In this document: one piece after another, positions 288 to 15,488 of the stretch
Position numbering within the stretch: position 1 is the first letter of the stretch
Layout: the number at the start of each line of letters is the position of its first letter
Assembly (NCBI RefSeq): GCF_900129325.1
Contig: NZ_FQUP01000002.1
Span: 574,668 to 638,667, forward strand
From: Kaistia soli DSM 19436
Lineage (GTDB): Bacteria > Pseudomonadota > Alphaproteobacteria > Rhizobiales > Kaistiaceae
DNA length: 64,000 bases
Reading direction: 5' to 3'
Notes under the pieces: model-generated
Seen by the model: only the letters and a program-made list of their open reading frames with translations
What the model was told of the DNA's origin: nothing
Database searches by the model: none
Program-made: the position numbers and the translations under genes

Positions 288-1670
288 TCAGGTCGCGGCG
301 AGGGGGCGCCGGCCCTTCTCGTCGCGCTCCCGCGCCTCGGTTCTGGCCGCATCCTTGACCAGTTCGCGGTCCATGGCATTGCGTGGCCAGTCGATGCGGA
401 CGATCGCGCCATGGGCCGGCTGCAGGCGGTTGGAGAGTTCTACCTTGGCCTGAGAGCGCTCCAGCAGCGTCTTGGCGATGAAGAAGCCGAGCCCGAGTCC
501 GCCGGCGCGCTCCTCGCCCTCGGCGCCCGAGGGCGCGCGCGTCGTGACATAGGGTTCACCGATATGGTCGATGACATCGGGCGCGAAGCCCGGCCCGTCA
601 TCGGCGATCACCAGCGAGACGCTGTCCTCGGTCCAGATGGCCGAGACTTCGACGAGGCTTTCAGCAAAATCGACAGCATTCTCCAGAAGGTTGCCGACGC
701 CATACATCACCGCCGGGTTGCGGCGGCCGACCGGCTCGGGGCCGGACTTCCCGACGAGGCGGACATCGATCCGCACGCCCGTTCCCTGATGGGGCTCTAC
801 CACCTCGGCGATCAGATGGCTGATCGGCAGGCGATCAAGATGCTGGTCGGTCTGCGTCGACATCGAGGTGAGCTTGCCGAGAATGTCGCGGCAGCGGTCC
901 GACTGGCTGCGCAGCAGCGCGACGTCCTCGGCATAGGGGCTTCCCTCAGGCAATTCGCGCTGCAGCTCCTTCGTCACGAGAGCGATGGTCGCGAGCGGCG
1001 TGCCGAGCTCATGCGCCGCCGCAGCCGCGAGGCCGTCGAGGGCCGAGAGATGTTGCTCGCGGGCAAGGACCAGCTCGGTCGCCGCCAGCGCTTCGGCGAG
1101 CTGGCGTGATTCTTCGGCGACGCGAAAGGCATAGTTGCCCATGAAGAAGACGCCGGAGACCAGCGCCACCCAGACGCCCGCGACATAGGTCAGCGGCAGG
1201 CTGATCGGCTCGCCGGTCCAGGGCAGCGGCAGATGGAAGACCGCGAGCACGCTGACGGCGCCGAGCACCAGCGCCCCGAGCGCGATCGTCAGCCGCGGGT
1301 CCAGCGTCGTCGCCGAGACCATCACCGGCACGATCAAAAGGATCGAGAACGGGTTCTGCAGCCCGCCCGTCAGATAGAGCAGCGCCGAGAGCTGCAACAC
1401 GTCATAGGCGAGCAGCAGCGCCGCGGTGCGGCCCTTGAGGCGTAGGCTCGATGGATAGCGGATCTTCAGGAAAAGGTTGAGCCAGGCCGACAGGGCGATC
1501 GCGCCCAGGCAGAAGCCGAGCGGCATCGGGAAGTCGAGCCAGAAGCGAACGATCACGACGGCCGCAGTCTGCCCGGCGACGGCGAGCCAGCGCAGGCGCA
1601 CAAGCGTATCGAGCTTGAGGCGCGGCCGGTTGGCGTTCTGCGAGGGCAGGCTTTCCTCAGCCATCGTCAT
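288..1670 (-). CDS. actS: ActS/RegB-family redox sensor histidine kinase
   Basis: This 460-residue protein has about six membrane segments in residues 28-185, followed by a HisKA dimerisation domain and an HATPase domain. The heptapeptide GGLQNPF (102-108) matches the ubiquinone-binding GGxxNPF signature of RegB/PrrB/ActS. The phosphoacceptor is His220 in AAAHELGTPLATIA. Cys260, in SDRCRDIL, lies exactly 40 residues later, the same spacing as His225 and the redox-active Cys265 of Rhodobacter RegB. The ATP-lid glycines GLGLGFFIAKT are near the C-terminus. It would autophosphorylate when the quinone pool and redox state signal low oxygen, then pass phosphate to the adjacent regulator. The ATG at 1670 follows an AGGAGC site. 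A second ATG two codons in (1664) is possible. It diverges from the PHA depolymerase gene across 200 bases. Confidence 0.93.
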   Translation of the reverse strand: MTMAEESLPSQNANRPRLKLDTLVRLRWLAVAGQTAAVVIVRFWLDFPMPLGFCLGAIALSAWLNLFLKIRYPSSLRLKGRTAALLLAYDVLQLSALLYLTGGLQNPFSILLIVPVMVSATTLDPRLTIALGALVLGAVSVLAVFHLPLPWTGEPISLPLTYVAGVWVALVSGVFFMGNYAFRVAEESRQLAEALAATELVLAREQHLSALDGLAAAAAHELGTPLATIALVTKELQRELPEGSPYAEDVALLRSQSDRCRDILGKLTSMSTQTDQHLDRLPISHLIAEVVEPHQGTGVRIDVRLVGKSGPEPVGRRNPAVMYGVGNLLENAVDFAESLVEVSAIWTEDSVSLVIADDGPGFAPDVIDHIGEPYVTTRAPSGAEGEERAGGLGLGFFIAKTLLERSQAKVELSNRLQPAHGAIVRIDWPRNAMDRELVKDAARTEARERDEKGRRPLAAT

Positions 1671-1870
1671 GATCAGGCGCTCCTATTCTCTGCCGGCTTT
1701 GCCCGCGAGCATAGCATGGCGCAAGACCGCTGCCCGTGCGCCGGGAGACATGACTTGCGCGGCGAAGAAATTCGTTCTTACATATTGCGGTGCAAAAAGA
1801 GCCGGCCCCGCCTCTGCCCGACGGTCATGGCCGACTTCCAGCTTCCGCCGAGCGGCAGACGGACTGTCGA

Positions 1871-3418
1871 ATGACGCCTTTTTCCTATTACCAGCTTTAT
1901 GAGTTGCACCACGCCGCGATGACGCCCCTGCGCGCGGCGGCTGATGTCATGAAGCTCGCTTTGCAGAATCCGCTCAATCCGTTCGCCCAGTCGCCGATTG
2001 GCAAGAACTGGTCGGCGGGCCTTGAACTGTTCGAGCGCGCGACGCGCCGCTATGGCAAGCCCGCCTTCGGGCTGCCCACGACGCTGGTCAGCGGCACGCG
2101 CGTCGCTGTCACCGAGCGCGTGGTCTGGAAGCGGCCGTTCTGCAATCTCATCCATTTCGAGCGCAGCCTCGACCGGCCGCGCAACGATCCGAAGCTGCTG
2201 ATCGTCGCGCCGATGTCGGGCCACTATGCGACGCTGCTGCGCGGCACCGTCGAGGCCATGCTGCCGAAGCACGAGGTCTATATCACTGACTGGATCGACG
2301 CCCGCGCCGTGCCGCTCAGCGATGGCAGCTTCGATCTCGACGATTATATCGATTACCTGATCTCGATCCTGCATGCGCTCGGCGGCGACACGCATGTCGT
2401 GGCCGTCTGCCAGCCGGCGGTGCCGGTGCTCGCGGCTGTTTCGGTGATGGAGGCCAAGGGCGATCCCTATGCGCCCCGCACCATGACGCTGATGGGTGGC
2501 CCGATCGACACGCGCATCAATCCGACGGCAGTCAACAAGCTTGCCGAGGGCAAGACGATCGACTGGTTCCGCGACAATGTCGTCATGAAGGTGCCGTTTC
2601 CTCATCAGGGCTTCATGCGCGACGTCTATCCGGGCTTCCTGCAGCTCTCGGGCTTCATGTCGATGAACATGGACCGCCATGTGAACGCCCATAAGGAATT
2701 CTTCGGCCATCTCGTCGCCGGCGACGGCGACAACCAGACCAAGCACCGCGATTTCTACGACGAGTATCTCGCGGTCATGGACCTTTCGGCCGAGTTCTAC
2801 CTGCAGACCGTCGATGCGGTATTCATCAAGCATTCGCTGCCCAAGGGCGAGATGATGCATCGTGACACGCCGGTCGACCCGTCAGCGATCCGCAATGTGG
2901 CATTGCTCACCGTCGAGGGCGAGAACGACGACATTTCCGGCGTCGGCCAGACCGAGGCGGCGCAGCGGCTCTGCGTCAACATCCCTGACGATATGCGCGC
3001 CCACTATGTGCAGCCGAAGGTCGGTCACTACGGTGTCTTCAACGGCTCGCGGTTCCGCGCCGAGATCGCCCCACGCATCGGCGACTTCATCCTGACGCAC
3101 AACCGCCGTCCGCCGGCCGGATCGGCTGCTGTCCCGCGCGTTGCCGCAAAGCCATCCAGCAAGGCTGCCGACACGCTGGCGGCGATCGTGCTTGCCAAGC
3201 CGAAGGGCGCGGCCGACGATCTGAAAGAGATCGCCGGCGTCGGCCCGAAGCTCGAGCAGACGCTGAACGCGATCGGCATCTTCCATTTCTGGCAACTGGC
3301 CGGCCTGACGCCGCCGCAGATCGAGGAACTCGACGGACGCCTCGCCTTCAAGGGCCGCATCGCGCGCGACCGCTGGGTCGAGCAGGCGGCGGAGCTGGCG
3401 CGCGAGCACACGGCCTGA
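1871..3418 (+). CDS. phaZ: Intracellular polyhydroxyalkanoate depolymerase with C-terminal helix-hairpin-helix tail
   Basis: The 515-residue product has two parts. Residues 1-410 are an alpha/beta-hydrolase of the intracellular PHA depolymerase family. The active site is read as Cys180 in VVAVCQPAVP (the family uses a cysteine in place of the lipase serine), an Asp in GENDDISG (about 353-355) and His386 in VGHYGVFNG. It would hydrolyse stored polyhydroxybutyrate to hydroxybutyrate in the cytoplasm. After a low-complexity Ala/Lys/Pro linker (415-447), residues 449-510 form a tandem helix-hairpin-helix unit with GVGPKLEQTL and FKGRIARDRWVEQA. The same tail is known on NuoE and ribosomal protein L21 of alphaproteobacteria. 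Most PhaZ proteins stop near 400-430 residues, so the tail is unusual. ATG 1871 is chosen because similarity starts at MTPFSYYQLYEL. An upstream GTG at 1790 gives a poor-quality extension. A hairpin terminator follows the gene. Confidence 0.92.
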   Translation: MTPFSYYQLYELHHAAMTPLRAAADVMKLALQNPLNPFAQSPIGKNWSAGLELFERATRRYGKPAFGLPTTLVSGTRVAVTERVVWKRPFCNLIHFERSLDRPRNDPKLLIVAPMSGHYATLLRGTVEAMLPKHEVYITDWIDARAVPLSDGSFDLDDYIDYLISILHALGGDTHVVAVCQPAVPVLAAVSVMEAKGDPYAPRTMTLMGGPIDTRINPTAVNKLAEGKTIDWFRDNVVMKVPFPHQGFMRDVYPGFLQLSGFMSMNMDRHVNAHKEFFGHLVAGDGDNQTKHRDFYDEYLAVMDLSAEFYLQTVDAVFIKHSLPKGEMMHRDTPVDPSAIRNVALLTVEGENDDISGVGQTEAAQRLCVNIPDDMRAHYVQPKVGHYGVFNGSRFRAEIAPRIGDFILTHNRRPPAGSAAVPRVAAKPSSKAADTLAAIVLAKPKGAADDLKEIAGVGPKLEQTLNAIGIFHFWQLAGLTPPQIEELDGRLAFKGRIARDRWVEQAAELAREHTA

Positions 3419-3433
3419 ACCAAGGTGCATGGT

Positions 3434-3470
3434 GGATCGAGGTGTATGGCGGCGCCTCGATCCGATTTTT
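3434..3470 (+). terminator. Rho-independent terminator of phaZ
   Basis: An 11-bp stem (3434-3444 with 3453-3463, one G-T wobble) encloses an 8-base loop and is followed by GATTTTT. It starts 16 bases after the phaZ stop codon, so it probably ends the phaZ transcript before the DUF2852 gene. Confidence 0.75.
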
Positions 3471-3537
3471 CTTGAAGTAGGGGGTGATCCTTCCCACCTC
3501 AATTCCCGTTGGGGATTTCCAGGAAGGAAAGGGATCC

Positions 3538-3996
3538 ATGACCCATACTCAGGCCTTGCGTCCGGGCTGGACGCCGCTCACCATCGCGATGATGGTCCTC
3601 GGCTTCGTCGTGTTCTGGCCGCTCGGTCTTGCTATGCTCGCCTACATCATCTGGGGCGACCGCATCCCCGAGTTCCGTCGCAGTGCGGAAGGCGTCAGGG
3701 ACGACTTCAAGCGTTCGTTTGGAGGCTGCGGCGCGAAGCGCTGGAGCGCCGGCAGCACGTATCAGAGCGGCAACACGGCCTTCGACTCCTATCGGGCCGC
3801 CGAGCTGAAGCGTCTTGAGGAAGAGCGCCGCAAGCTCGACGGAGAGCGCGCGGAATTCGAGGAGTTCGTCCAGAACCTCCGCCGTGCCCGCGACCAGGAA
3901 GAGTTCGATCGCTTTAAGGCCGATCGCAGCCGCGCCCGCACGGCGCCGGCCAGCGAGCCGCGCCAGAACGGCGACGGTCCGGTCATCGACCTCTGA
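3538..3996 (+). CDS. DUF2852 family membrane protein
   Basis: This 152-residue protein is of unknown function. A hydrophobic segment at about residues 12-36 (LTIAMMVLGFVVFWPLGLAMLAYIIW) is followed by GDRIPEF, the conserved pattern of DUF2852. The rest is hydrophilic. Residues 80-130 are rich in Glu, Arg and Lys with heptad character, consistent with a coiled coil, and the C-terminus is Arg/Ala-rich and probably disordered. It is likely a single-span inner-membrane protein with a cytoplasmic helical tail. ATG 3538 is chosen because AGGAAGG lies just upstream. The gene stands alone between two intrinsic terminators (3434-3470 and 4036-4062), so it appears to be a monocistronic unit. The family is common in Hyphomicrobiales. 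Confidence 0.85.
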   Translation: MTHTQALRPGWTPLTIAMMVLGFVVFWPLGLAMLAYIIWGDRIPEFRRSAEGVRDDFKRSFGGCGAKRWSAGSTYQSGNTAFDSYRAAELKRLEEERRKLDGERAEFEEFVQNLRRARDQEEFDRFKADRSRARTAPASEPRQNGDGPVIDL

Positions 3997-4035
3997 TCGA
4001 GGCACGACCACCCGGTTTCGGGTGACAAGGGATGC

Positions 4036-4062
4036 GGCCGGGCAGCGATGCCCGGCCTTTTT
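4036..4062 (+). terminator. Rho-independent terminator after the DUF2852 gene
   Basis: A perfect 9-bp GC-rich stem (4036-4044 with 4049-4057) has a GCGA tetraloop and is followed by five T residues. It lies 40 bases after the DUF2852 stop. It also argues against starting the downstream metallopeptidase gene at an upstream codon near 4032. Confidence 0.9.
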
Positions 4063-4133
4063 CGTGCGAGAATCGGCAGCGCGATTCGGCCGGCCGCTCG
4101 GGCCGGTTCTGTCGAGGCGGGAGCGAAGGCCGC

Positions 4134-5461: not shown

Positions 5462-6397
5462 CTAGCGCCAGCGATTATGCAGCCAGAGCCACTGGTCCGG
5501 ATGCTCGCGCACCCAGCCTTCGACCACCGACATGACCAAAGCGGTGCCGCCGGCGACATCGATGCGGCCTTCGGCATCGCGCGGCATGTCGAGCGGCGGG
5601 GTCAGCTCGACGCGAAAGCGGCCGTCCGGCAAGCGGATGGTGCGGGCGCCATGCACGGGGCATTCATATTGTCGCGCAAGGCGCGCAACGAGCGGATTGG
5701 CAGAGACGAGGCGGCCGAAGAACGGCACGCGCGGCCCGCCGGTATGATGCTGGTCGGTGAGGAGGCCGAGATGCTCGCCGCGATCAAGCGCCGCCGCGAC
5801 CTCGAAGGTGGCGCCGCGGCCTGAGGCGACGAGCGTGCCCATCAGTTCCTCGCGCCGCGCCATCAGGTCTTGCGCGATGCGGTTGTTGCTCGGCATGCGG
5901 AACAGCGCGACGACTGGAAGGTCGAAGCGCGCCGCGACGATCGCGAGCGCTTCCCAATTGGCGAGGTGAGCCGAGAAGATGATGCCGGGCTTGCCGTCCT
6001 CGCGCAGCGAAAGGAACTGGTCGAGCCCCGCGATCTCGGTGCGTCCGCGCTCGGGATGGTGCGGGTCGATGTCGATCAGCTTGTCGATATGAACATATTC
6101 GACGACGGTGCGGCCGAGGCTCGCCCAGGCGCCGTCGAGGATCGCCTGATGCTCTTCCGGCGTCTTTTCAGGGAACGCCGCTGCCAGATTCGCGCGCGCC
6201 AGCCGCGACTCGGGTATGAAACGCCCGACGAATCGCGACAGCCGGTCGGCAAGCCAACCGGAGGCTTTCGGGCCGAGCAGGCGCACAAAGCCGATCAGCC
6301 CGCGCACCGTGCCACCAATGATCGCGTTGACGAGCGGGGAGCGCAGAAGCTTCCGCGTGAATTCCTTGCGTTGCCGCTTGCGGTCGGCCTTGCTCAT
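5462..6397 (-). CDS. lpxXL: Lipid A acyltransferase LpxXL (LpxL/HtrB family)
   Basis: This 311-residue member of the lysophospholipid acyltransferase-like family has the catalytic HX4E box at His144-Glu149 (SAHLANWE) and a membrane-proximal N-terminus (residues 20-45). In rhizobia LpxXL moves the 27-hydroxyoctacosanoyl chain from AcpXL to lipid A at the inner membrane. The identity is supported by position: it ends the acpXL-fabZ-fabF2-fabF1-adh cluster. ATG 6397 is chosen because CAGGACAG precedes it and similarity begins at MSKADRKRQRKEF. A longer frame upstream lacks family resemblance. Paralogues acting with ordinary acyl-ACP exist, so the substrate is inferred from context. Confidence 0.9.
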   Translation of the reverse strand: MSKADRKRQRKEFTRKLLRSPLVNAIIGGTVRGLIGFVRLLGPKASGWLADRLSRFVGRFIPESRLARANLAAAFPEKTPEEHQAILDGAWASLGRTVVEYVHIDKLIDIDPHHPERGRTEIAGLDQFLSLREDGKPGIIFSAHLANWEALAIVAARFDLPVVALFRMPSNNRIAQDLMARREELMGTLVASGRGATFEVAAALDRGEHLGLLTDQHHTGGPRVPFFGRLVSANPLVARLARQYECPVHGARTIRLPDGRFRVELTPPLDMPRDAEGRIDVAGGTALVMSVVEGWVREHPDQWLWLHNRWR

Positions 6398-6452
6398 CGC
6401 ACTGTCCTGAAAAGCGGGCGGCGCATTGTATCGCGCAGAATCGCCGTCGACA

Positions 6453-7451
6453 TCATGGCGCCCTGAATCCGATCCGCCCATGGGCGCCGTCGAAAGCGAC
6501 CGCGACGGCATGGAAGAGCGCCTGGCCGAGATTGGAGTGGGGCGTCGCCTTCGGCATGATGTAGGTCGACCGGTCCGTCAGCAGGGACAGGTCGAGTGCG
6601 TCCGGGATCTGCAGCGACAAGGTCTGGCCAGGCAGCAGGAAGCCATGCGGACCGACACGAAGGTTCGTCAGGGCCCCTCCGTCGAAAACGCCGTCGACTG
6701 CGCCGGTATCGAAGATCAGCTTCTGGCAGGACGCCGCCGCTTCATCGACGGCATAGCAGCCCGTGATGGACCCGGCGTCCCAGGATGCGATGTCCGGCGA
6801 CGACTGCGCCGCTGGCTGGAGGGAGGCGAAGCGGAATCCCTTGAGACTATCGGACGTCAGGCCGATCGTGACATGCGGCGGCTCGCCCGTCAGCATGTCG
6901 ACGATGAATCCCGAATTGAGATTGCCCGGGAGTTGCGCCAGCGGGCTGATCAGCGCGCCGCTCGCCTGCAGGCTGACACCCATCACGCCGGGCCGCTGGT
7001 CGCTGGCGGGGCAGTTCGGCTTGTCGTCGGCGCATGAGACCCGCGTGATCACGCCGATCGAGATCGGCTGCGCAGTCTCGACGCCCGCCTCGACAAGGCG
7101 CACCGTCGCGAGGCCGACATAGCCTTCGAAGCGCGTGCCGTCGACATAGCCCTGATGGATCGGCGTGCTGGTTTGCTGGACATCGGGGCCGATGTCGGCC
7201 GCCATCACATAGAGGCCGGACGAGCCTGTGTCGAAATTGACCGGAACCGGGGTTCCATTGCCGACGCTGATCCGCACGAGGGTCGGCTTATGGTCCGGCC
7301 GATCGGTGAACATCGGCAATTCGGCGCTCGCCGGCACGGTATCAGCGGCCGCAGGCCGGCCTACGAACAGGCTGGCCACCAGGCACGCAGCGGCGAAGAC
7401 GGCCGCCCGCCGTCGCGGGCGGGCCTTCGCTCCTGCCGAGGTATGGCTCAT
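6453..7451 (-). CDS. Exported pepsin-like aspartic protease homologue
   Basis: The 332-residue product starts with a basic stretch and a hydrophobic signal segment (about residues 17-36) ending near AAAD, so it is probably exported. Two aspartic-protease-like active-site loops are visible: VNFDTGSSGLYV in the first half and LIFDTGAVDGVFDGG in the second. This matches the two-lobed pepsin layout (DTG in each lobe) and not the one-lobed retropepsin form. Bilobed pepsin homologues are known but uncommon in bacteria. Activity is not proven, and a non-catalytic relative such as the DUF3443 type remains possible. It sits 8 bases after adh and 55 bases before lpxXL, so it appears to be part of the lipid A operon, a position not usual for that cluster. 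ATG 7451 has a GAAGG site. A TTG at 7463 is the alternative start. Confidence 0.7.
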   Translation of the reverse strand: MSHTSAGAKARPRRRAAVFAAACLVASLFVGRPAAADTVPASAELPMFTDRPDHKPTLVRISVGNGTPVPVNFDTGSSGLYVMAADIGPDVQQTSTPIHQGYVDGTRFEGYVGLATVRLVEAGVETAQPISIGVITRVSCADDKPNCPASDQRPGVMGVSLQASGALISPLAQLPGNLNSGFIVDMLTGEPPHVTIGLTSDSLKGFRFASLQPAAQSSPDIASWDAGSITGCYAVDEAAASCQKLIFDTGAVDGVFDGGALTNLRVGPHGFLLPGQTLSLQIPDALDLSLLTDRSTYIMPKATPHSNLGQALFHAVAVAFDGAHGRIGFRAP

Positions 7452-7459
7452 CCGCGCCT

Positions 7460-8485
7460 TCAAAGCGTGACGATGATCTTGCCGAACACCTGGCGCTGCT
7501 CGATCCGGTCGAGGGCGCTGTCGATATCCTCGAGATCGACCACGCTGTCGATGACGGGCGTGACGATGCCGGTGCCGATCTTGCCCATGGCGTGGGCGAT
7601 GTTCTCGATGCGGCAGCCGAACGAGCCGATCAGCCGCAGCTGCTGCTGGTAGAGCTGGAAAAGGTTGATCTCGGCCGAGATGCCGGTGGTCGAGCCGCAG
7701 GTGACGAGCGTGCCGCCACGGCGCAGCGAGAACATGCTGCCCGCCCAGGTGTCAACGCCGACATGTTCGAACACGACGTCGACGCCGCGCTTCTTGGTCA
7801 GCTTGCGGACGACGCCTTCGAACCGCTCTTCGCGATAATTGATGACGTGATGCGCGCCGAGCTCGCGCGCCTTCTCGGCCTTTTCGGGGCTGCCGACCGT
7901 GGTGATGATCGTCGCGCCGGCTGCGCGGGCGAGTTGGATCGCCGCCGTGCCGATGCCGCTGCCACCGGCCTGGATCAGGATCGTCTGGCCGGCTTCGAGC
8001 TTGGCATTGTCGAATAGCATGTGCTCGACGGTGCCGAAGGTGACCGGCGTGCAGGCGGCATCGCGCACCGTGACGCCTTCGGGCGCCGGCACGACGAGGC
8101 GTGCCTTCATCGTCACATAGTCGGTGGCGAGGCCGTCGATATGGAAGCCGCGCACGCCGGCGACGTTTTCGCAGAGATTGTCGCGGCCCGCATGGCAAGC
8201 CGGACACATGCCGCAGGTTTCCGCGCCATAGATCGCGACGCGCTGGCCGACGGCAAGCCCTTCGACCGACGGGCCGATCTTCTCGATCGTACCGGCCGCC
8301 TCGGCGCCGATAGTCAGCGGCAGCTTGCGCTTGGCAAAGGCCATGCCGCGCCAGCCCCAGACATCGATGTGATTGAGCGCGACAGCACCGATCTTGACGC
8401 GGACTTCGCCGGGACCGGGCTCCGCCGCCATCGGCACGTCGACGATCGAAAGCTTGCGGTCGGAAAGGAGCTGAAGCGCGCGCAT
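7460..8485 (-). CDS. Zinc-type alcohol dehydrogenase of the very-long-chain lipid A cluster
   Basis: This 341-residue medium-chain dehydrogenase/reductase has the structural zinc cysteines in CGMCPACHAGRDNLC and a Rossmann dinucleotide site (AGGSGIGTAAIQLA). It is the adh member that accompanies acpXL, fabF1 and lpxXL in rhizobia, where a role in forming or processing the long-chain hydroxy fatty acid has been proposed but not settled. It lies downstream of fabF1 after 131 bases that contain several hairpins. ATG 8485 starts the family-typical MRALQLLSD. General quinone reductase or alcohol dehydrogenase activity cannot be excluded from sequence. Confidence 0.87.
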   Translation of the reverse strand: MRALQLLSDRKLSIVDVPMAAEPGPGEVRVKIGAVALNHIDVWGWRGMAFAKRKLPLTIGAEAAGTIEKIGPSVEGLAVGQRVAIYGAETCGMCPACHAGRDNLCENVAGVRGFHIDGLATDYVTMKARLVVPAPEGVTVRDAACTPVTFGTVEHMLFDNAKLEAGQTILIQAGGSGIGTAAIQLARAAGATIITTVGSPEKAEKARELGAHHVINYREERFEGVVRKLTKKRGVDVVFEHVGVDTWAGSMFSLRRGGTLVTCGSTTGISAEINLFQLYQQQLRLIGSFGCRIENIAHAMGKIGTGIVTPVIDSVVDLEDIDSALDRIEQRQVFGKIIVTL

Positions 8486-8616: not shown

Positions 8617-9903
8617 TCAGGCGGGCTCTGCGGCGATCAGCAGGCAGGCATTCTGGCCGCCGAAGCCGAACGAGTTCGACAGAACCATCGATACGGGCTG
8701 CGACCGCGCGACATTCGGCACCACGTCCAGCGGGATCGCCGGGTCGGGATTCTGGTAGTTGATCGTCGGCGGAATCAGGCCCTCGGCGATCGTCTTCAGC
8801 GAGAAAACCGCCTCGATGGCGCCAGCCGCCGTCAACGTGTGTCCGATCATCGACTTGTTGGACGAGATCGGAATGCCCTTCAGCGCGTCGCCGAAGACGG
8901 CCTCTAGCGACATCGCCTCCATCTTGTCATTCTCCGGCGTGCCGGTGCCATGCGCGTTGATGTAGTCGACATCGGCGGTCGAGACGCCACCATCATCGAG
9001 CGCCTGCTGGATCGCGGCGATGACGGGCGAGCCATCCGGCTTCGAGCGGGTACGGTGGAAATCGTCTGCCTTCTCGGCGATGCCCCTGACAACGCCGAGA
9101 ATCTTGGCGCCGCGCGCGCGGGCCGCGTCATAGTCCTCGAGCACCAGGGCGCCGGCGCCTTCCGCCATCACGAAGCCGTCGCGATCCTTCGAGAACGGGC
9201 GCGAGGCCCTTTCCGGATCGTCATTGCTGGTCGAAAGGGCGGAAAGCAGCGAGAAGCGCACGAGGCCTTCGATGCGCACGGACCCGTCGGTGCCGACAAC
9301 CAGCGCCGCCTCGGTATCGCCGCGTCGGATCGCCTCGACGCCGAGCTGGATCGCCGAGGCGCCCGAGGCACATGCGGTCGACAGCGAGATCGGCGCGCCG
9401 CGTGTGCCGAAATGGTCGGCGGTGCGGTCGGCGACGCAGCCATAGAGCGCAAATTCATAGGTGTCGGGATCGTTCAGCGACAACACGCGCTGGATCATCC
9501 GGTCATAGGCATCGCCTGCTTCGGGATCGGTGCCGGCAAAGAAGTCGCGACGTGCCGGCCACTCGATCTCGACCGGCGGCACCGCCATGAACAGCATGCC
9601 CGGGAAATCGCCGGGCGCGCCGATGCCCGATTGCTCGACAGCCTCGGCGGCGGCGAGATGGGCGAGCCGCTCGGACAGGACAGGCGAACGCACTTCGTCG
9701 GGAAACAGGAAGTCGACTGTTCCGGCGATCGTGGTCCGCATATGCAGCGTCGGAAACCGGGTGATCCGATGAATGCCCGACTTGCCGGCGGTCAGGGCCG
9801 CCCAGTTGTCGTCGATGCCCTGGCCGAGCGAGGAGACGACGCCCATGCCGGTGACGGCGACCACAGGCCGTCCGAGGTGATCGCGAGTCTTGGCCATCGC
9901 CAT
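8617..9903 (-). CDS. fabF1: Beta-ketoacyl-ACP synthase II, catalytic member (FabF1XL)
   Basis: This 428-residue thiolase-fold condensing enzyme has all three catalytic residues: Cys178 in STACASGAS, His318 in NAHGTGT and His355 in NKSMIGHT. It would elongate acyl chains on AcpXL towards C28 in the cytoplasm. It starts 9 bases after fabF2, which codes for a relative lacking the catalytic residues, so the two may work as a heterodimer. An ATG two codons downstream of 9903 is an alternative start. Confidence 0.92.
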   Translation of the reverse strand: MAMAKTRDHLGRPVVAVTGMGVVSSLGQGIDDNWAALTAGKSGIHRITRFPTLHMRTTIAGTVDFLFPDEVRSPVLSERLAHLAAAEAVEQSGIGAPGDFPGMLFMAVPPVEIEWPARRDFFAGTDPEAGDAYDRMIQRVLSLNDPDTYEFALYGCVADRTADHFGTRGAPISLSTACASGASAIQLGVEAIRRGDTEAALVVGTDGSVRIEGLVRFSLLSALSTSNDDPERASRPFSKDRDGFVMAEGAGALVLEDYDAARARGAKILGVVRGIAEKADDFHRTRSKPDGSPVIAAIQQALDDGGVSTADVDYINAHGTGTPENDKMEAMSLEAVFGDALKGIPISSNKSMIGHTLTAAGAIEAVFSLKTIAEGLIPPTINYQNPDPAIPLDVVPNVARSQPVSMVLSNSFGFGGQNACLLIAAEPA

Positions 9904-9912
9904 GTCCTTCCT

Positions 9913-11127
9913 TCAGTCCGCCGCCTCGACGAGCGCCATGCCCTCGCCGCGCCAGAAGCCCCAGCTGGTGGCGAGAATCTGCGCCGGCGTCTCTGCCGGC
10001 TGCTCGATGCCGCTGCCATCGGTTGGAAGATAGAAACCGTGCCGCGCGATCGCCAGTGCGGCAAGTGCGACCTGAACCGGGAAAGCTGCCTCGATCGGAT
10101 TGCCGATCAGGGTTTGCGTGGCACGAACGCCGCCGATCTTGCCCTCGGTGGCGAGTTGCTCCCAGAGCCCGCGCTCTTCAGCAGTTGCCGCCGCGATGCC
10201 GTTAGCCCCCGAAAGAACGCCGGGTGCCTTGGCGCCAAACCGGGCGGAAAGCTGGTCGAACTGCTTGCGCGCAACCGCGCTCGCATCGCCGGGACCGCGG
10301 CGGCTTCGTCCCGAAAGAACGGCCGAAAGCTTCGCATAGGCCGATTTGCCGCGCGCCTCGGCATGAGCGCGCGATTCGAGCACGAGGAAGGCGCCGGCCG
10401 AGCCGGTGATCATGCCGCCTTCCGCTGTCGTGCCGCGCTCCCAGACCGATGCCGGCTCGCCCTGCCAGAGCGTCCGGCCCATGGCGAGCGACAAAAGCAT
10501 GTCCTTGCGCTCGGCATTATAGGCCGCGCCGACGAGGAACAGATCGCCCTGGCCGGCGCTGATGCGCCGCGCCGCGACCTCGACGGCGCTGATGCCGGCG
10601 ATCTCCTCGCCCATGAAAGTGCGCGAGGAGCCGGTCACCTTGTGGACGATCGAGATATTGCCGGCGAGAAGGTTGGAGAGCTGCGCCAGAAACAGCGTCG
10701 GACGCAGATCGTTGGCGAGATGCTCGTTAAGGAACGAGGCCGGTTCGGCGGCCGTCTCGAGGCCGGCGAGGATCTGACCGTCGACATCGAGGTCGCGTTC
10801 GCCGCCACCGGCCGCCACGACCATGTCCATCCGCGCCAGCCGCTCGGCATCGCCGGTGAGTCCGGCATCGTCGAGCGCGAGGCCGGCGGTATAGGTGCCG
10901 AGCCGCTGCCAGGTTTCCATCTGCCGGATATCTGCGCGGCGCGGAATCTGCTTCTCCAGCTCCAGCGGCACCATCGGGAAGACCGGGAACGGCTTGAACT
11001 TGTCGGTCTCGGCGGGATGAGGCCGCGCGCCCGTTTCGGCCATCGCCTGCCAATGCGCATCGAGCCCCTCGCCGAGCGAGGAGACGAGGCCGATGCCGGT
11101 AACGAGGACGTCGTTCGGGGCGCTCAT
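9913..11127 (-). CDS. fabF2: Beta-ketoacyl-ACP synthase-like protein lacking the catalytic triad (FabF2XL)
   Basis: The 404-residue product keeps the thiolase/ketosynthase fold (VTGIGLVSSLGEGLDAHW at the start, GMITGSAGAFLVLES in the middle). The nucleophile loop reads KVTGSSRTF (about 163-171) where TACASG is expected, so the cysteine is absent. The HGTGT motif is replaced by SGANGIA, and the NKSxxGHT histidine by TLIGNPIEAAF. All three catalytic residues therefore appear to be lost. By analogy with the chain-length factor (KS-beta) of type II polyketide synthases it is probably a non-catalytic partner of FabF1. Its first four bases (ATGA) overlap the end of fabZ. Confidence 0.9.
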   Translation of the reverse strand: MSAPNDVLVTGIGLVSSLGEGLDAHWQAMAETGARPHPAETDKFKPFPVFPMVPLELEKQIPRRADIRQMETWQRLGTYTAGLALDDAGLTGDAERLARMDMVVAAGGGERDLDVDGQILAGLETAAEPASFLNEHLANDLRPTLFLAQLSNLLAGNISIVHKVTGSSRTFMGEEIAGISAVEVAARRISAGQGDLFLVGAAYNAERKDMLLSLAMGRTLWQGEPASVWERGTTAEGGMITGSAGAFLVLESRAHAEARGKSAYAKLSAVLSGRSRRGPGDASAVARKQFDQLSARFGAKAPGVLSGANGIAAATAEERGLWEQLATEGKIGGVRATQTLIGNPIEAAFPVQVALAALAIARHGFYLPTDGSGIEQPAETPAQILATSWGFWRGEGMALVEAAD

Positions 11128-11603
11128 GTTGCTTCCGTGATAGGTGCGGCGCCCGGCACGAGGCCGATCGCCTCCGCGCGCTTGACGAGCTCGCCGCGCA
11201 GTTCGGCGGCAGGGAAATCCATGATGCGCAGAGTCAGTTCGGCATCGCAGACCGGGCCGTCCTGCTCGATCCGCGCATTGGTAACCGTGAAGCCGGAGCC
11301 CTCATGGACGAGGCTGGCATGGACGTCGAGCGTCGCGCCGGGCTGAATGAACTTGCGGAACTTCGCCTTCTTCACGCCCATGAAGAAGGGCATGCGCGAC
11401 AGCTCGTTGAGGCCGAGGATCAGATAGCCGGAGGCCTGTGCCATCGTCTCGATGAGCAGCACGCCCGGCATGATCGGATAGCCGGGAAAATGACCCTCGA
11501 ACACGGGGCTGCGCTCCGGGACGATCGCCCGGCAGTGAATGGTTCCGGCAGCGGCGTCGAAGGCGACGACGCTGTCGATCATCTGGAAATATTCGAGGCG
11601 CAT
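11124..11603 (-). CDS. fabZ: 3-hydroxyacyl-ACP dehydratase of the AcpXL system (FabZ-like)
   Basis: The 159-residue hot-dog-fold dehydratase has the FabZ active-site region FEGHFPGYPIMPGVLLIETMAQ, with a catalytic His in GHFPG and Glu in LIETMAQ. It would dehydrate 3-hydroxyacyl-AcpXL during each elongation cycle. The C-terminus is slightly longer than housekeeping FabZ. It starts 7 bases after acpXL and overlaps fabF2 by 4 bases, which indicates translational coupling in the lipid A operon. Confidence 0.92.
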   Translation of the reverse strand: MRLEYFQMIDSVVAFDAAAGTIHCRAIVPERSPVFEGHFPGYPIMPGVLLIETMAQASGYLILGLNELSRMPFFMGVKKAKFRKFIQPGATLDVHASLVHEGSGFTVTNARIEQDGPVCDAELTLRIMDFPAAELRGELVKRAEAIGLVPGAAPITEAT

Positions 11604-11610
11604 CTCGCCG

Positions 11611-11892
11611 TCAGGCGTTCTTCTTGGCGATCAGTTCGTCGATATGGGCGCAGAGATTCTTCAGCAGGAAATATTCCTCGACCGAGGCTTTGCCTGCGTT
11701 CACTTCCTGCGTCCACTGCTCGAGTGGGATCTTGATGCCGAACTTCTTGTCCAGCGCGAAGACGATGTCGAGGAAGTCGAGGCTGTCGATGCCGAGGTCG
11801 TCGATCGCGTGCATCTCCGGCGTGATCTTCTCGCGCGGGATTTCGCTCGTCTCGGAGATCACATCGGCAACGATGTCGAACGTGGATGACAT
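11611..11892 (-). CDS. acpXL: Very-long-chain acyl carrier protein AcpXL
   Basis: This 93-residue acyl carrier protein has the phosphopantetheine attachment Ser in [10 protein letters not shown] (about residue 37) and the rhizobial AcpXL C-terminus ([22 protein letters not shown]). It carries the growing 27-hydroxyoctacosanoate chain for lipid A. It is the first gene of the cluster running to lpxXL. ATG 11892 is preceded by AGGACC and begins the family-typical [13 protein letters not shown] longer open frame upstream to 12012 codes for unlike sequence and is not used. Confidence 0.95.
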
Positions 11893-12093
11893 GACGGTCA
11901 GTGGTCCTATGTTCTCGCGGGCTTCCGGGTGGCGACGCCGGCAGCGTCGGAGCGGCACGGGGGCCGCGGGCGCTGCCATCGAACCAGTCCGGCAGGCCGG
12001 ATAGCGAAGCAATTGCTGCCGTCCTGATACCGTGTGCGGGCGCGAAATACCAGCCTGTCGCCGTGCCGCACCCTCAAGCAGGTCGCATGTCGC

Positions 12094-12975
12094 CTATGCA
12101 CCCACCGGGATGACGTCCACGGCGACATCGATCGTGTGGTCGCCGGAGATCACGATGACGCCGCCCGAGGGCGCCGCGTCGGAATAATCGCGACCGATCG
12201 CGAGCACGACATGGTCCTCCGCCGCAGCGACGCCATTGGTCGGATCGAGGCCGATCCAGCCTGCCTCGCGGCCGCACCAGACGGCGACCCAGGCATGTGT
12301 GGCGTCGGCGCCTTCGAGGCGCGGCTTGCCGGGCGGCGGCTCGGTGCGCAAGAAACCGCTGACATAGGCCGCCGGCAGGCCGATCGTCCGAAGCCCCGCG
12401 ATCATCACATGTGCGAAATCCTGACAGACGCCGGCGCGCTTGGCGAAGGCGTCGGCCGGCAGCGTGCTGACATCCGTCGCCTCCGGATCATATTTGAACT
12501 CGGCCTTGATCCGCTTGGTGAGCTCGAACGCGCCTTCGAGGATCGTCTTCCCCGGCGGGAAGCTCTTTTGCGCATAGTCGCCGATCGCCTCGTCGAGGGC
12601 GATGAGGCGGCTGGCAAACAGGAAATGCACAGGAGACTTTGGCCCGAGATCCGTCTCGGCGACGGCGCTGCGCCGGATCTGCTCGAAGGGCGGCGTCTTC
12701 TGCGTCGTCCGCGCTTCGGTCTTTTCGACAAGCACGCGAGCCCGTGTCTCCAGGCGCAATTCGCTGTGTGGGAACGAGAAGGCCACGGTCGTGATGCGGT
12801 TGCCGAAGAAATCGAGGCTGTCCGTGCGCTCGGTCGGCGCAGGGCTGATGGAGAGATCGGTCGCGATGACGCGCTGGCCCGGCCGCTCGACCGGCAACAG
12901 CCGCAGCACCTGCCGCGCGAACGGAACCGGGCTCGCATAGCGATACTCGGTCACCAGCTTGATGTCGTAGAGCAC
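12094..12975 (-). CDS. Transglutaminase-like domain protein (COG1305)
   Basis: The 293-residue protein has a bacterial transglutaminase N-terminal beta domain (about 1-85) and a papain-like core with the triad Cys184 (AGVCQDFAH), His227 (ATHAWVAV) and Asp244 (LDPTNG). No signal peptide is seen, so it is probably cytoplasmic. In bacteria such domains usually act as peptidases or amidases, not as cross-linkers. It starts with GTG two bases after the stop of the ATP-grasp/alpha-E gene and is the last gene of a compact three-gene operon. In the framework of Iyer and Aravind, this partner set is predicted to build or cleave an unknown peptide or amide conjugate. Confidence 0.9.
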   Translation of the reverse strand: MLYDIKLVTEYRYASPVPFARQVLRLLPVERPGQRVIATDLSISPAPTERTDSLDFFGNRITTVAFSFPHSELRLETRARVLVEKTEARTTQKTPPFEQIRRSAVAETDLGPKSPVHFLFASRLIALDEAIGDYAQKSFPPGKTILEGAFELTKRIKAEFKYDPEATDVSTLPADAFAKRAGVCQDFAHVMIAGLRTIGLPAAYVSGFLRTEPPPGKPRLEGADATHAWVAVWCGREAGWIGLDPTNGVAAAEDHVVLAIGRDYSDAAPSGGVIVISGDHTIDVAVDVIPVGA

Positions 12976-12977
12976 GA

Positions 12978-15488
12978 TCAGTCTCCGCCCTCGAGCGGCT
13001 GAAGCGGCCGTCGGTGGGTGAAATAGGCCAGCGCGATCTCGTCCGAAATGCGCATCAGCGTCTGCTCGTAGCTGACGATCGTTTCGGCATCGAGCGCCGA
13101 TGCGTCCGCCGTTTCGAGTTCCGAGGCGAGGCGCGAAGCGAGTCGGTCGGCCGGGGCGAGCAGTCCGGCCGGGGCGTGGGCCGGGAGATTGGCGAGAGAC
13201 TGGCGGATGCGGTCGGCCTGGAAGGCGAGCGAACGCGGATTGCCGCCGTCGAGCAGCACCAGATCGATCACCGGCACGCGCGCCGCCTGCATGACGTAGC
13301 GGATGCGATAGGTGATCTGGCTGTCGGCGATTTCGAGAAGGGCGTCCAGCTCGGCGCTCGTCCCGGCAAGGCCGCAGAAGCGTGTCGCGCGGGCGACGCC
13401 GAGGCCGCGATCGATGCGGCGGCCCATTTCAAGGAAACGCCAGCCATTGTGGCGCACCATGTTTTCCTGTGCGAGCCCGGAGAAGGCGGCGACGATGCGC
13501 AGCGCCTCGCTGGCCCGCTCGTGCATGTCGCTGCCGGTATAGGCGGCGAGCGGCCGGTTGAGCAGGATTTCAAGATCGGCCACGGCGCGCCAGGCATCGG
13601 GCGACAGGCGGTCGCGGATGACGGAGGCGGCGCGCCGGGAGGATTCGGCGAGCCGCGGAATGGTGTTGAAGGCCCGCCGGTCGGTGAGGGCGGCCAGCGC
13701 AAGGCGCGCGGGCTGCATCGGCCCACGTTCGGATTCGGCCGCGCCTGCAGCCACCAGAATGCCGACGAGCCGCGCCACCGCGCCGCCATTCGCCTCGGCG
13801 TCGACGAGCCGCCCGGAGACGGCGCGCACGAGACGCAGCGCCTGTTCGGTGCGCTCGACATAGCGGCCAAGCCAGAACAGGTTTTCGGCGGCGCGGCTTG
13901 GCAGCGTCGAGGTGGCACGGCGGAGCGGCACCTTGTCGGGCGAGCCGAGCAGCGTCGTCTCGGCCACCGGACCGTCGGACAGCACCCAGACATCTGCCGA
14001 GGCGCCGCCCTGCTGCAGCGTCACGGCGCGAGCGTCGGCACGCTCGGAGATGCGGCAGAAGCCGCCGGGCATCGCCTTCCAGCCGTCGGCCGTGCGCGCG
14101 ACATAGAGGCGCAGGATAGAGGGTCGCGGCTCCAGCCGGGCATCGTCGCCTTCGCCGCGCCAGACGGGCGTCGTCGAGAGCTTCACCGCTTCTTGGCCGA
14201 CATAATCCTGCCCGCGTCGGCCAATCGCATCGACGAGCCGCGCCTTCTCCTCAGGCGAGAGGTCGGCGCCGAACACGGGTCCGCGGGCGAGAACGCCCGG
14301 CAGCGTCGCGCCGAGCGCCGGCGCGATCACCATGCTTTCGAACGCCTCGACGACATGATCGCGCTCGAGCGTCTGGCCGCACCACCAGGTCGCGACATTC
14401 GGCAGGATCAGCTTCTCGCCGAGGATGCGTTCCGCAAGGCCGGGCAGGAAGCCCATCATGGCGCGCGCCTCGGCGACGCCAGACCCCAGCGCATTGGCGA
14501 TCGCGACATTGCGGTGACGGACGGCGCCGGCAAGGCCGGGCACGCCAAGCCGCGAGGCGGGATTGAGTTCGAGCGGATCGGCGAAGTCTGCATCGAGGCG
14601 GCGCAGCAGCACGTCGGCGCGCTTCAGCCCGGAGATCGTCCGCATATAGACCGTGTCGTCGCGCACCGTGAGGTCCTCGCCCTCGACGAGGACGAAGCCG
14701 AGATAGCGGGCGAGATAGGCGTGCTCGAAATAGGTCTCGTTGAGCGGGCCGGGCGTCAGCAGCGCGACGCGCGTTTCCTCATGGCGGTTGAGCGCATTGA
14801 GGCCGGCGCGAAACTCCTGGAAGAAGCCGGCGAGCCGCTCGACCTTGAACGAGCGGTAGATATCGGGCAGCGCCTGCGACAGCGCGATACGGTTTTCAAG
14901 CGCATATCCGGCGCCGGAGGGGGCTTGGGTGCGGTCCGAGATCACCCACCAATCGCCATCCGGTCCGCGGCCGACATCGACGGCATAGAGGCGCAGGTGA
15001 TGGCCGCCGACCGGCTGCGAGCCGACAAGCGGGCGCAGGAATTCCGGGCTGCCGGCGAGGATCGCTGCCGGCAGGGCGCCGTCGGCCGCCAGCGTGCCTT
15101 CGCCATAGGTGTCGCCGAGGATCGCGTCGAGCAGCTTGGCGCGCTGGATCAGTCCGGCCTCGAGATGCTTCCACTCTTCCGGTTCGATCAGGAACGGCAC
15201 ATGCGCCAGCGGCCATGGCCGCTCGTCCCCGGTCTCGCCGCCATAGACGCGCATCACGACGCCCGATTCGGCGAGATGCCGGTCGGCGAGCGCAAAGCGA
15301 TGCGCCACCTCGCGGCTGCCGAGTTCGGCCATCGTGTCGACGAAGCGCTGCCAATGCGGGCGGATGCGGCCGTCCTTGCCGATCAGCTCGTCGGCGACGC
15401 CCGGCATTGGCTTGTAGTGCCTGACGAGCCGCGCGGCCCTTTCGGCGACAGTGCGGCTCTTGCGCGTGGTTTCCCGGCGAGGCACCAA
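12978..15488 (-). CDS. Circularly permuted ATP-grasp type 2 / alpha-E fusion protein
   Basis: The 836-residue product joins two families often encoded separately. Residues of roughly 25-490 are a circularly permuted ATP-grasp ligase (COG2308), recognisable by GDWWVISDRTQAPSGAGYALENR and LLTPGPLNETYFEHAYLARYLG. The C-terminal third (about 520-830) is an alpha-helical alpha-E domain (COG2307), beginning SRAAENLFWLGRYVERTEQALRL and with NGWRFLEMGRRIDRGLG further on. ATP-grasp enzymes activate a carboxylate with ATP and join it to an amine. The product here is unknown. The start is uncertain: TTG 15488 and GTG 15485 are adjacent one base after the upstream stop, and an internal ATG near residue 28 (MPGVADEL) is also possible. 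It is coupled to both neighbours. Confidence 0.9.
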   Translation of the reverse strand: MVPRRETTRKSRTVAERAARLVRHYKPMPGVADELIGKDGRIRPHWQRFVDTMAELGSREVAHRFALADRHLAESGVVMRVYGGETGDERPWPLAHVPFLIEPEEWKHLEAGLIQRAKLLDAILGDTYGEGTLAADGALPAAILAGSPEFLRPLVGSQPVGGHHLRLYAVDVGRGPDGDWWVISDRTQAPSGAGYALENRIALSQALPDIYRSFKVERLAGFFQEFRAGLNALNRHEETRVALLTPGPLNETYFEHAYLARYLGFVLVEGEDLTVRDDTVYMRTISGLKRADVLLRRLDADFADPLELNPASRLGVPGLAGAVRHRNVAIANALGSGVAEARAMMGFLPGLAERILGEKLILPNVATWWCGQTLERDHVVEAFESMVIAPALGATLPGVLARGPVFGADLSPEEKARLVDAIGRRGQDYVGQEAVKLSTTPVWRGEGDDARLEPRPSILRLYVARTADGWKAMPGGFCRISERADARAVTLQQGGASADVWVLSDGPVAETTLLGSPDKVPLRRATSTLPSRAAENLFWLGRYVERTEQALRLVRAVSGRLVDAEANGGAVARLVGILVAAGAAESERGPMQPARLALAALTDRRAFNTIPRLAESSRRAASVIRDRLSPDAWRAVADLEILLNRPLAAYTGSDMHERASEALRIVAAFSGLAQENMVRHNGWRFLEMGRRIDRGLGVARATRFCGLAGTSAELDALLEIADSQITYRIRYVMQAARVPVIDLVLLDGGNPRSLAFQADRIRQSLANLPAHAPAGLLAPADRLASRLASELETADASALDAETIVSYEQTLMRISDEIALAYFTHRRPLQPLEGGD

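What the first reader, a model, noticed from the sequence alone, without database searches (positions are those of the whole stretch)
9913..11127. FabF2 of the AcpXL cluster has lost all three ketosynthase catalytic residues
The nucleophile loop reads KVTGSSRTF with no Cys, and both catalytic His motifs are replaced (SGANGIA and TLIGNPIE), while adjacent FabF1 keeps Cys178/His318/His355. The pair looks like the KS-alpha/KS-beta (chain-length factor) heterodimer of type II polyketide synthases, and could explain how chain length reaches C28.
Basis: partly seen in the sequence, partly recalled or inferred. Interest (0 to 1): 0.6.

Follow-up and report, generated by a model that had tools for sequence, protein, structure and literature searches.

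The report
Inactive ketosynthase partner in lipid A
In a gene cluster for the very long fatty acid of the outer-membrane lipid, one of two sister ketosynthases has lost its active site and probably serves only as the partner of the other, a design known from polyketide synthases.

Summary
FabF2 (404 aa, minus strand) has no cysteine and lacks the KS Cys, Lys and both His; FabF1 keeps all four. But the nucleophile position is Glu175 of RTFMGEE, not the KVTGSSRTF stretch. And the third loss (His to Asn343) belongs to the window's own bacterial family: 110 of 119 distinct FabF2 keep that His. Cys to Glu (118 of 119; one Asp) and loss of the first His and the Lys (119 of 119) mark the whole family.

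The KS-alpha/KS-beta-like reading is supported by computation. FabF1 occurs in 17 of the 18 genomes with FabF2 and in no other of 385. 115 of 115 measured pairs lie on one strand. A tandem model (pTM 0.91) overlays the solved PfaC KS-CLF. The FabF Arg68 docking position is basic in 119 of 119 FabF2 and 4 of 115 FabF1. Published genetics: an A. fabrum fabF2XL mutant lacks VLCFA. That FabF2 sets chain length was not tested. No held paper that I found describes this. New variant of a known kind.

The parts
9913..11127 (-). FabF2 (FabF2XL-type), 404 aa, ketosynthase fold without catalytic residues; proposed KS-beta/CLF-like subunit
8617..9903 (-). FabF1 (FabF1XL-type), 428 aa, ketosynthase with Cys178, His318, Lys350, His355; proposed catalytic subunit
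10603..10623 (-). RTFMGEE (residues 169-175) of FabF2; Glu175 stands at the nucleophile position
10201..10203 (-). Asn309 of FabF2 at the first catalytic His position
10114..10116 (-). Gln338 of FabF2 at the catalytic Lys position
10099..10101 (-). Asn343 of FabF2 at the second catalytic His position; His in 110 of 119 distinct FabF2
10924..10941 (-). residues 63-68 of FabF2 (RRADIR): conserved basic patch at the ACP-docking region 1 of FabF
10792..10809 (-). GGGERD motif (107-112) of FabF2, at the acyl-gate (Ile108) loop of FabF; 109-111 of low confidence in the lone model
10681..10707 (-). LRPTLFLAQ motif (141-149) of FabF2; 142-149 of low confidence in the lone model, raised in the tandem model
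11124..11603 (-). FabZ-type dehydratase of the cluster, overlaps the FabF2 start by 4 bases
11611..11892 (-). AcpXL, acyl carrier protein NF005079 (93 aa from the Met at residue 41 of the listed ORF)
7460..8485 (-). zinc-type dehydrogenase of the cluster (AdhA2XL position)
5462..6511 (-). lipid A acyltransferase (LpxXL-type), NF005120

Best explanation
FabF2 is a non-catalytic ketosynthase subunit that pairs with FabF1 to form the elongating condensing enzyme of the AcpXL-dependent very-long-chain fatty acid pathway of lipid A. FabF1 carries the only active site. FabF2 takes the place of the second KS subunit, supplies the interface and, most likely, the surface on which AcpXL docks while its acyl chain enters FabF1. 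Shown by sequence: loss of the catalytic residues, strict pairing, conservation. Inferred from models and from E. coli FabF: the heterodimer and the docking surface. Inferred by analogy only: that a tunnel at the FabF1/FabF2 interface allows and limits growth to about C26-C30. The confidence given is for the non-catalytic partner in a FabF1-FabF2 pair, not for the length rule.
For: Catalytic residues lost in FabF2 and kept in FabF1 (119 and 115 distinct sequences). Same strand, FabF2 first, in 115 of 115 measured pairs (one of them a duplicate record), median gap 21 nt with stop. Co-occurrence: FabF2 over the cut-off in 18 of 385 class genomes and FabF1 at E 1e-120 or better in 17 of the same 385, all 17 within the 18; in the 18th (G227) FabF2 is cut at a contig end. 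One genome carries two adjacent FabF2-FabF1 pairs. Tandem model of 836 aa: pTM 0.91, pLDDT 86.6; Foldseek matches the PfaC KS-CLF didomain 6riw with TMq 0.73 over 943 columns, while the other 49 listed hits reach 0.43-0.45. FabF2 blocks 101-150, weaker alone (75, 66, 86, 75, 45), rise in the tandem (88, 89, 88, 82, 67). FabF docking region 1: Arg68 column basic in 119 of 119 FabF2 and 4 of 115 FabF1; segment net charge +2.04 (120 rows) against -1.11 (116 rows). In the AcpP-KS structures the majority of contacts come from the KS monomer that is not crosslinked to the ACP (PMC7138838, section 7). A. fabrum fabF2XL insertion mutant has no VLCFA in lipid A and is partly restored by fabF2XL in trans (PMC11901934, section 2.2).
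Against: No physical evidence of the complex. A two-KS tandem may be modelled as a dimer simply because KS enzymes are dimers, and no control tandem was run. VIA-align did not list 6riw among its 50 rows, which align the FabF1 half only. The exact Lys65 and Lys69 columns are basic in neither protein, the other docking regions are not clearly conserved in FabF2, the FabF1 alignment is gapped near region 1, and in the ishigamide KS-CLF an ACP contact lies on the KS subunit itself (PMC7949117 passage). The A. fabrum insertion, in the first gene of its operon, could be partly polar on fabF1XL, and complementation was partial. FabF1+FabF2 as one clade is not rejected (p-AU 0.258), so kinship with CLFs is open.
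Confidence: 0.8

Rival explanations
1. FabF2 is a separate enzyme that uses Glu175, for example a malonyl-AcpXL decarboxylase like the KSQ domains that supply starter units, or an acyl hydrolase.
For: Glu is at the nucleophile column in 118 of 119, Asp in 1; two annotated CLFs have Gln there; the second His is kept in 110 of 119.
Against: The first His and the Lys are lost in 119 of 119, and the window's bacterial family lost the second His too. KSQ domains keep both His (recalled, no call). Strict pairing with FabF1 is not needed for this.
Confidence: 0.08
2. A variant inside the best explanation: FabF2 pairs with FabF1 only as a structural and ACP-docking partner; chain length is set elsewhere (by FabF1's own pocket, AcpXL or LpxXL).
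For: FabF1's loop at the FabF acyl gate is itself remodelled and conserved (Pro110, Glu112, Trp115 at 100%); FabF2's matching loop is charged (GGGERD), which does not look like an acyl tunnel wall.
Against: In known KS-CLF pairs the interface channel sets length (PMC12664062 and PMC7949117 passages). Not tested here for this pair.
Confidence: 0.35
3. FabF2 is a decaying duplicate kept by linkage, with no function.
For: dN/dS is higher than FabF1's in five of six pairs compared and equal in one; identity to the window is lower, 43-53% against 55-66%.
Against: 46 invariant columns among 40 sequences, including MGEE; dN/dS 0.10-0.30; the A. fabrum mutant lacks VLCFA; ORS278 fabF2XL mutants could not be obtained (PMC5613085 passages).
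Confidence: 0.01
4. FabF2 homodimerises and acts as a chaperone or scaffold for the cluster, apart from FabF1.
For: KS-fold proteins commonly dimerise; no physical data exist.
Against: In the 385 genomes not seen without FabF1 except where FabF2 is cut at a contig end; the tandem model packs the two as in a KS-CLF pair.
Confidence: 0.06

Closest known systems
Type II polyketide synthase KS/CLF (KS-alpha/KS-beta) heterodimer
   Same: Adjacent genes; one active KS (Cys-His-His-Lys) and one inactive full-length KS (definition in PMC12664062 passage); commonest elbow residues MGEEAAGVDA in FabF2, close to VGEQAAGLDA and VSEQAGGLDA of two annotated Streptomyces CLFs.
   Different: Glu, not Gln, at the nucleophile position; second His mostly kept; the partner genes are a dedicated ACP, a dehydratase and a lipid A acyltransferase, and the product in studied relatives is a hydroxylated C26-C30 fatty acid (PMC11901934, PMC5613085).
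PfaC KS-CLF didomain of PUFA synthase (PDB 6riw)
   Same: The FabF2-FabF1 tandem model overlays it as a whole (TMq 0.73); also a KS-CLF of fatty acid synthesis.
   Different: One polypeptide of a megasynthase (order KS then CLF recalled); 15% identity in the match.
Highly reducing KS-CLF pairs: ApeO-ApeC (aryl polyene), Iga11-CLF (ishigamide)
   Same: Heterodimer with an inactive partner working in repeated elongation with beta-processing (PMC8358021 and PMC7949117 passages).
   Different: E. coli ApeC is 240 aa and the A. baumannii one has only one thiolase fold (PMC8358021 passage); FabF2 is full length.
FabF (KAS II)
   Same: Fold: VIA-align Z about 43 to FabF structures; FabF1 also has the catalytic residues.
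   Different: FabF2 lacks all four catalytic residues; FabF is an active dimer.
FabF2XL of the acpXL-lpxXL cluster of rhizobia and agrobacteria
   Same: Same gene family and cluster order.
   Different: Published work that I saw names it a beta-ketoacyl-ACP synthase or elongation protein; 'catalytic' and 'heterodimer' do not occur in the main text of the two mutant papers.

Membership tests
KS/CLF (KS-beta) of type II PKS | full-length KS homologue that lacks catalytic residues | tested here: met
   Cys, first His and Lys absent in 119 of 119 distinct FabF2; second His absent in the window but kept in 110 of 119
KS/CLF (KS-beta) of type II PKS | encoded beside an active KS with Cys-His-His and Lys | tested here: met
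   115 of 115 measured pairs on one strand; FabF1 C, H, K, H in 115 of 115 distinct
KS/CLF (KS-beta) of type II PKS | Gln at the nucleophile position, as in the two annotated CLFs read here | tested here: not met
   Glu in 118 of 119, Asp in 1; Gln in XanCLF and S158CLF
KS/CLF (KS-beta) of type II PKS | clade with known CLFs in a KS tree | tested here: inconclusive
   FabF2, two annotated CLFs and two other Cys-less KS homologues lie on one side of a 96.5% branch; FabF2+CLF held together is 3.6 log units better than the free tree (p-AU 0.591), but FabF1+FabF2 is not rejected (p-AU 0.258); long branches
KS/CLF (KS-beta) of type II PKS | obligate heterodimer with the active KS | tested here: inconclusive
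   tandem model pTM 0.91 and match to 6riw; no control tandem, no bench data
KS/CLF (KS-beta) of type II PKS | interface channel that sets product length | not testable with these tools
   no coordinates of the model were available; needs mutants and product analysis
KS/CLF (KS-beta) of type II PKS | polyketide product | not tested
   the cluster makes lipid A VLCFA in A. fabrum and Bradyrhizobium by published work; no product data for the window's organism
FabF / KAS II condensing enzyme | Cys-His-His triad and Lys | tested here: not met
   Glu175, Asn309, Gln338, Asn343
NCBIfam NF005084 (beta-ketoacyl-ACP synthase) | score over the curated cut-off of 320 bits | tested here: met
   526 bits; the model's name implies an activity that the residues do not support
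KSQ malonyl-ACP decarboxylase | Gln in place of Cys with both His kept (recalled) | tested here: not met
   Glu or Asp, and first His absent, in 119 of 119
ApeC-type short CLF | CLF about half the size of its KS | tested here: not met
   FabF2 404 aa, 373-428 aa among 120 rows; E. coli ApeC 240 aa

The most novel reading that the evidence does not exclude
The acyl-chain elongation of lipid A VLCFA is run by a one-sided KS/CLF-type heterodimer in primary metabolism: AcpXL docks on the dead subunit FabF2, the chain enters FabF1, and the chain end passes the interface into FabF2, whose sealed former active site (GERD, LRPT, RTFMGEE) ends growth near C28.
Probability: 0.4. Interest if true: 0.78.

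Novelty: new variant of a known kind. Interest (0 to 1): 0.62.

Why it matters
How rhizobia and their relatives reach C26-C30 chains is, to my knowledge, open; the two KS genes of the cluster are annotated as two enzymes. If FabF2 is a non-catalytic partner, the pathway has one condensing enzyme made of two unlike subunits, a design known from polyketide and polyunsaturated fatty acid synthesis but, in the papers searched here, not described for lipid A. It makes the length question directly testable by interface mutants, explains why loss of fabF2XL abolishes VLCFA in A. fabrum, and calls for a corrected annotation of a family seen, by record titles, in Hyphomicrobiales and some Acetobacteraceae.

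Tried and rejected
Rejected: the KVTGSSRTF stretch as the nucleophile position (profile and MAFFT alignments put Glu175 there); loss of all three catalytic residues as a trait of the protein family; decaying duplicate. Open: the tree does not decide between a FabF1 duplication and a CLF origin. VIA-align of the FabF2 model ranks FabF chains first, with all 50 listed rows at Z 42.2-43.7, and Foldseek lists the actinorhodin CLF chain 1tqy_B at rank 42 with a TM-score like that of FabF, so the fold of FabF2 alone does not separate KS from CLF. VIA-align of the tandem model lists FabF1-half matches only, 6riw not among its 50 rows. Not attempted: coevolution between the two proteins (too few pairs), tunnel volume (no coordinates). 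Bourassa et al. 2017 is not held. Paper searches: (all 10 allowed), 20 of 43 papers were listed and no listed row that holds acpXL or lpxXL holds a chain-length-factor or KS-CLF term. Most subscription papers are not held, so this is no proof of novelty.

Rows left out: L026 (FabF2 cut at a contig end) from A1 and from the 120-row counts; FabF1 of L019, L027 (open frame longer than the gene) and L081 (cut) from the FabF1 counts; L077 has no FabF1 match, its contig ends shortly after FabF2. The loci overlap: one FabF2 and one FabF1 sequence were doubled (L013, L064), hence 119 and 115 distinct; rows also overlap in part with those. The tandem alignment used 29 of 37 in-frame loci plus the window; eight in-frame Bradyrhizobium loci were left out. 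The tree used 17 loci of the 121 with FabF2, plus 11 references; ApeC was left out for its length.

Full report
What is there. On the minus strand the window holds AcpXL (11611-11892), a FabZ-type dehydratase (11124-11603), FabF2 (9913-11127), FabF1 (8617-9903), a zinc-type dehydrogenase (7460-8485) and an LpxXL-type acyltransferase (5462-6511). FabZ and FabF2 overlap by 4 bases; FabF2 and FabF1 are 9 bases apart. FabF2 scores 526 bits in NCBIfam NF005084, cut-off 320, a model named beta-ketoacyl-ACP synthase; Pfam finds only the N-terminal KS domain in it, whereas FabF1 has both KS domains. The closest named relatives with the gene are a MAG labelled Bosea (84%) and Kaistia dalseonensis (76%), so the organism is probably of the Kaistiaceae (inference; taxonomy).

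The observation. FabF2 has no cysteine in 404 residues. In an alignment of 41 FabF2 and 40 FabF1 rows, Cys178 falls on the second Glu of MGEE, Glu175; a profile of 40 FabF2 against E. coli FabF gives the same register. First His: Asn309; Lys: Gln338; second His: Asn343.

The family. In 119 distinct FabF2 (120 rows with one duplicate; one cut row dropped) the nucleophile column is Glu in 118 and Asp in 1; the first-His column is Thr 67, Ser 41, Cys 8, Asn 3; the Lys column is never Lys; the second-His column is His in 110. In 115 distinct FabF1 all four columns are invariant C, H, K, H. Nine of the 119 lack the second His: the window, L051-L055, L057, L046, L095. Relatives drawn from the window's genus (13 of 13) and bacterial family (8 of 8 with the gene, of 11 drawn) lack it; of five further copies from other families of the order four have His and one has Gln; all 27 rows (26 copies) have the GEE motif. 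The window is therefore an extreme member of a family whose constant trait is Cys to Glu (once Asp) and loss of the first His and the Lys.

Distribution and pairing. Among 385 genomes drawn from the class, 18 exceed the cut-off, with a gap between 371 and 94 bits. Of 299 drawn from the phylum 28 exceed it, all in the same class. FabF1 at E 1e-120 or better occurs in 17 of the same 385, all within the 18; the one left over, G227, has FabF2 cut at a contig end. In the 115 pairs that could be measured both genes are on one strand with FabF2 first, median gap 21 nt including the stop. One genome has two adjacent pairs. Selection is purifying: dN/dS 0.10-0.30 for FabF2 in six pairs, 0.06-0.30 for FabF1.

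Structure. FabF2 alone models well (pLDDT 89.9, pTM 0.89); its segments under pLDDT 50 are residues 109-111 and 142-149, although GGGERD and LRPT are among the most conserved parts. The window's FabF2 stop is in frame with FabF1, so a read-through gives a tandem of 836 residues with a short linker. Its model has pTM 0.91, and the weak blocks of FabF2 gain confidence. Foldseek places a solved KS-CLF didomain, PfaC 6riw, at rank 6 with TMq 0.73 over 943 columns; the other 49 listed hits have TMq 0.43-0.45. A score of 0.73 normalised by the whole model needs both halves to be placed about as in 6riw (inference).

Docking surface. In the crosslinked AcpP-FabF and AcpP-FabB structures the majority of contacts come from the KS monomer that is not crosslinked, and region 1 of FabF is Lys65, Arg68, Lys69 (PMC7138838, section 7 read). 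A pair with one active site then needs that surface on the inactive subunit only. The Arg68 column is basic in 119 of 119 distinct FabF2 and 4 of 115 FabF1. The segment's mean net charge is +2.04 (120 rows) against -1.11 (116 rows); in a wider stretch +1.6 against -4.5. FabF2 also has K or R at residues 63 and 64 in 97% and 93%. Against this: the exact Lys65 and Lys69 columns are basic in neither, regions 2 and 3 are not clearly preserved, the FabF1 alignment is gapped here, of two annotated KS-alpha/CLF pairs only one shows the same division of charge, and in the ishigamide pair an ACP contact lies on the KS (PMC7949117 passage).

Likeness to CLF. Two annotated Streptomyces CLFs read VSEQAGGLDA and VGEQAAGLDA at the elbow; the commonest residues of FabF2 read MGEEAAGVDA. 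A 45-row tree puts FabF2, the two CLFs and two other Cys-less KS homologues on one side of a 96.5% branch. Holding FabF2 with the two CLFs gives a tree 3.6 log units better than the free search (p-AU 0.591), but FabF1+FabF2 as one clade is not rejected (p-AU 0.258) and branches are long. The likeness may be descent or convergence.

Published genetics. In A. fabrum C58 a fabF2XL insertion mutant had no VLCFA in lipid A by GC-MS, partly restored by fabF2XL on a plasmid (PMC11901934, section 2.2 read whole, other passages by search). In Bradyrhizobium ORS278 acpXL, fabZXL, fabF1XL and fabF2XL mutants could not be obtained (PMC5613085, passages). In S. meliloti transposon insertions in these cluster genes caused a growth disadvantage in the test medium (PMC5539429, passages). 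A S. meliloti FabF2 shows the same MGEE motif and GHGIE. In the main text of the A. fabrum paper the terms catalytic, chain length factor, heterodimer and active site do not occur; in the ORS278 paper catalytic and heterodimer do not.

Conclusion. FabF2 is almost certainly not a condensing enzyme by itself (sequence). It most likely forms a KS/CLF-like heterodimer with FabF1 (about 0.8). That FabF2 measures chain length is a fair guess by analogy with KS/CLF reviews (PMC12664062, PMC7949117, passages) and was not tested. It works like a CLF on this evidence; membership of the polyketide CLF family is not shown, and the Gln feature is not met.

Noticed in passing
window 6453-7463 (-): ORF of 336 aa (TTG start in the list) with a signal-like start and a VNFDTGSSGLYV stretch like an aspartic protease, lying between the dehydrogenase and the LpxXL gene; it was not sought in other loci.
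   Followed up: no
L167 (G688), bases 1659-4119 and 11282-13822: Two adjacent FabF2-FabF1 pairs in one genome, one with a more diverged FabF2 (45% to the window) that still has GEE.
   Followed up: partly
L034, L037, L039, L041-L046: Nine loci of one family (f175) have AcpXL, FabF2, FabF1, ADH and LpxXL but no FabZ match in the cluster.
   Followed up: no
   Followed up: partly
L137 (CP090106.1): A 3.7-Mb S. meliloti record labelled plasmid pSymB carries the acpXL cluster; from its size it may be a mislabelled chromosome.
   Followed up: no
window about 49081-49848 (+), L140: A second ketosynthase (452-aa open frame, with SACATS) lies in the window; the own genome shows three matches to FabF1, itself included, at E 1e-20 or better.
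   Followed up: no
FabF1 residues 107-118 (window 9550-9585, -): The loop at the FabF Ile108 gate is replaced by a strongly conserved AxPPVExEW motif in FabF1, unusual among the KS read here.
   Followed up: partly
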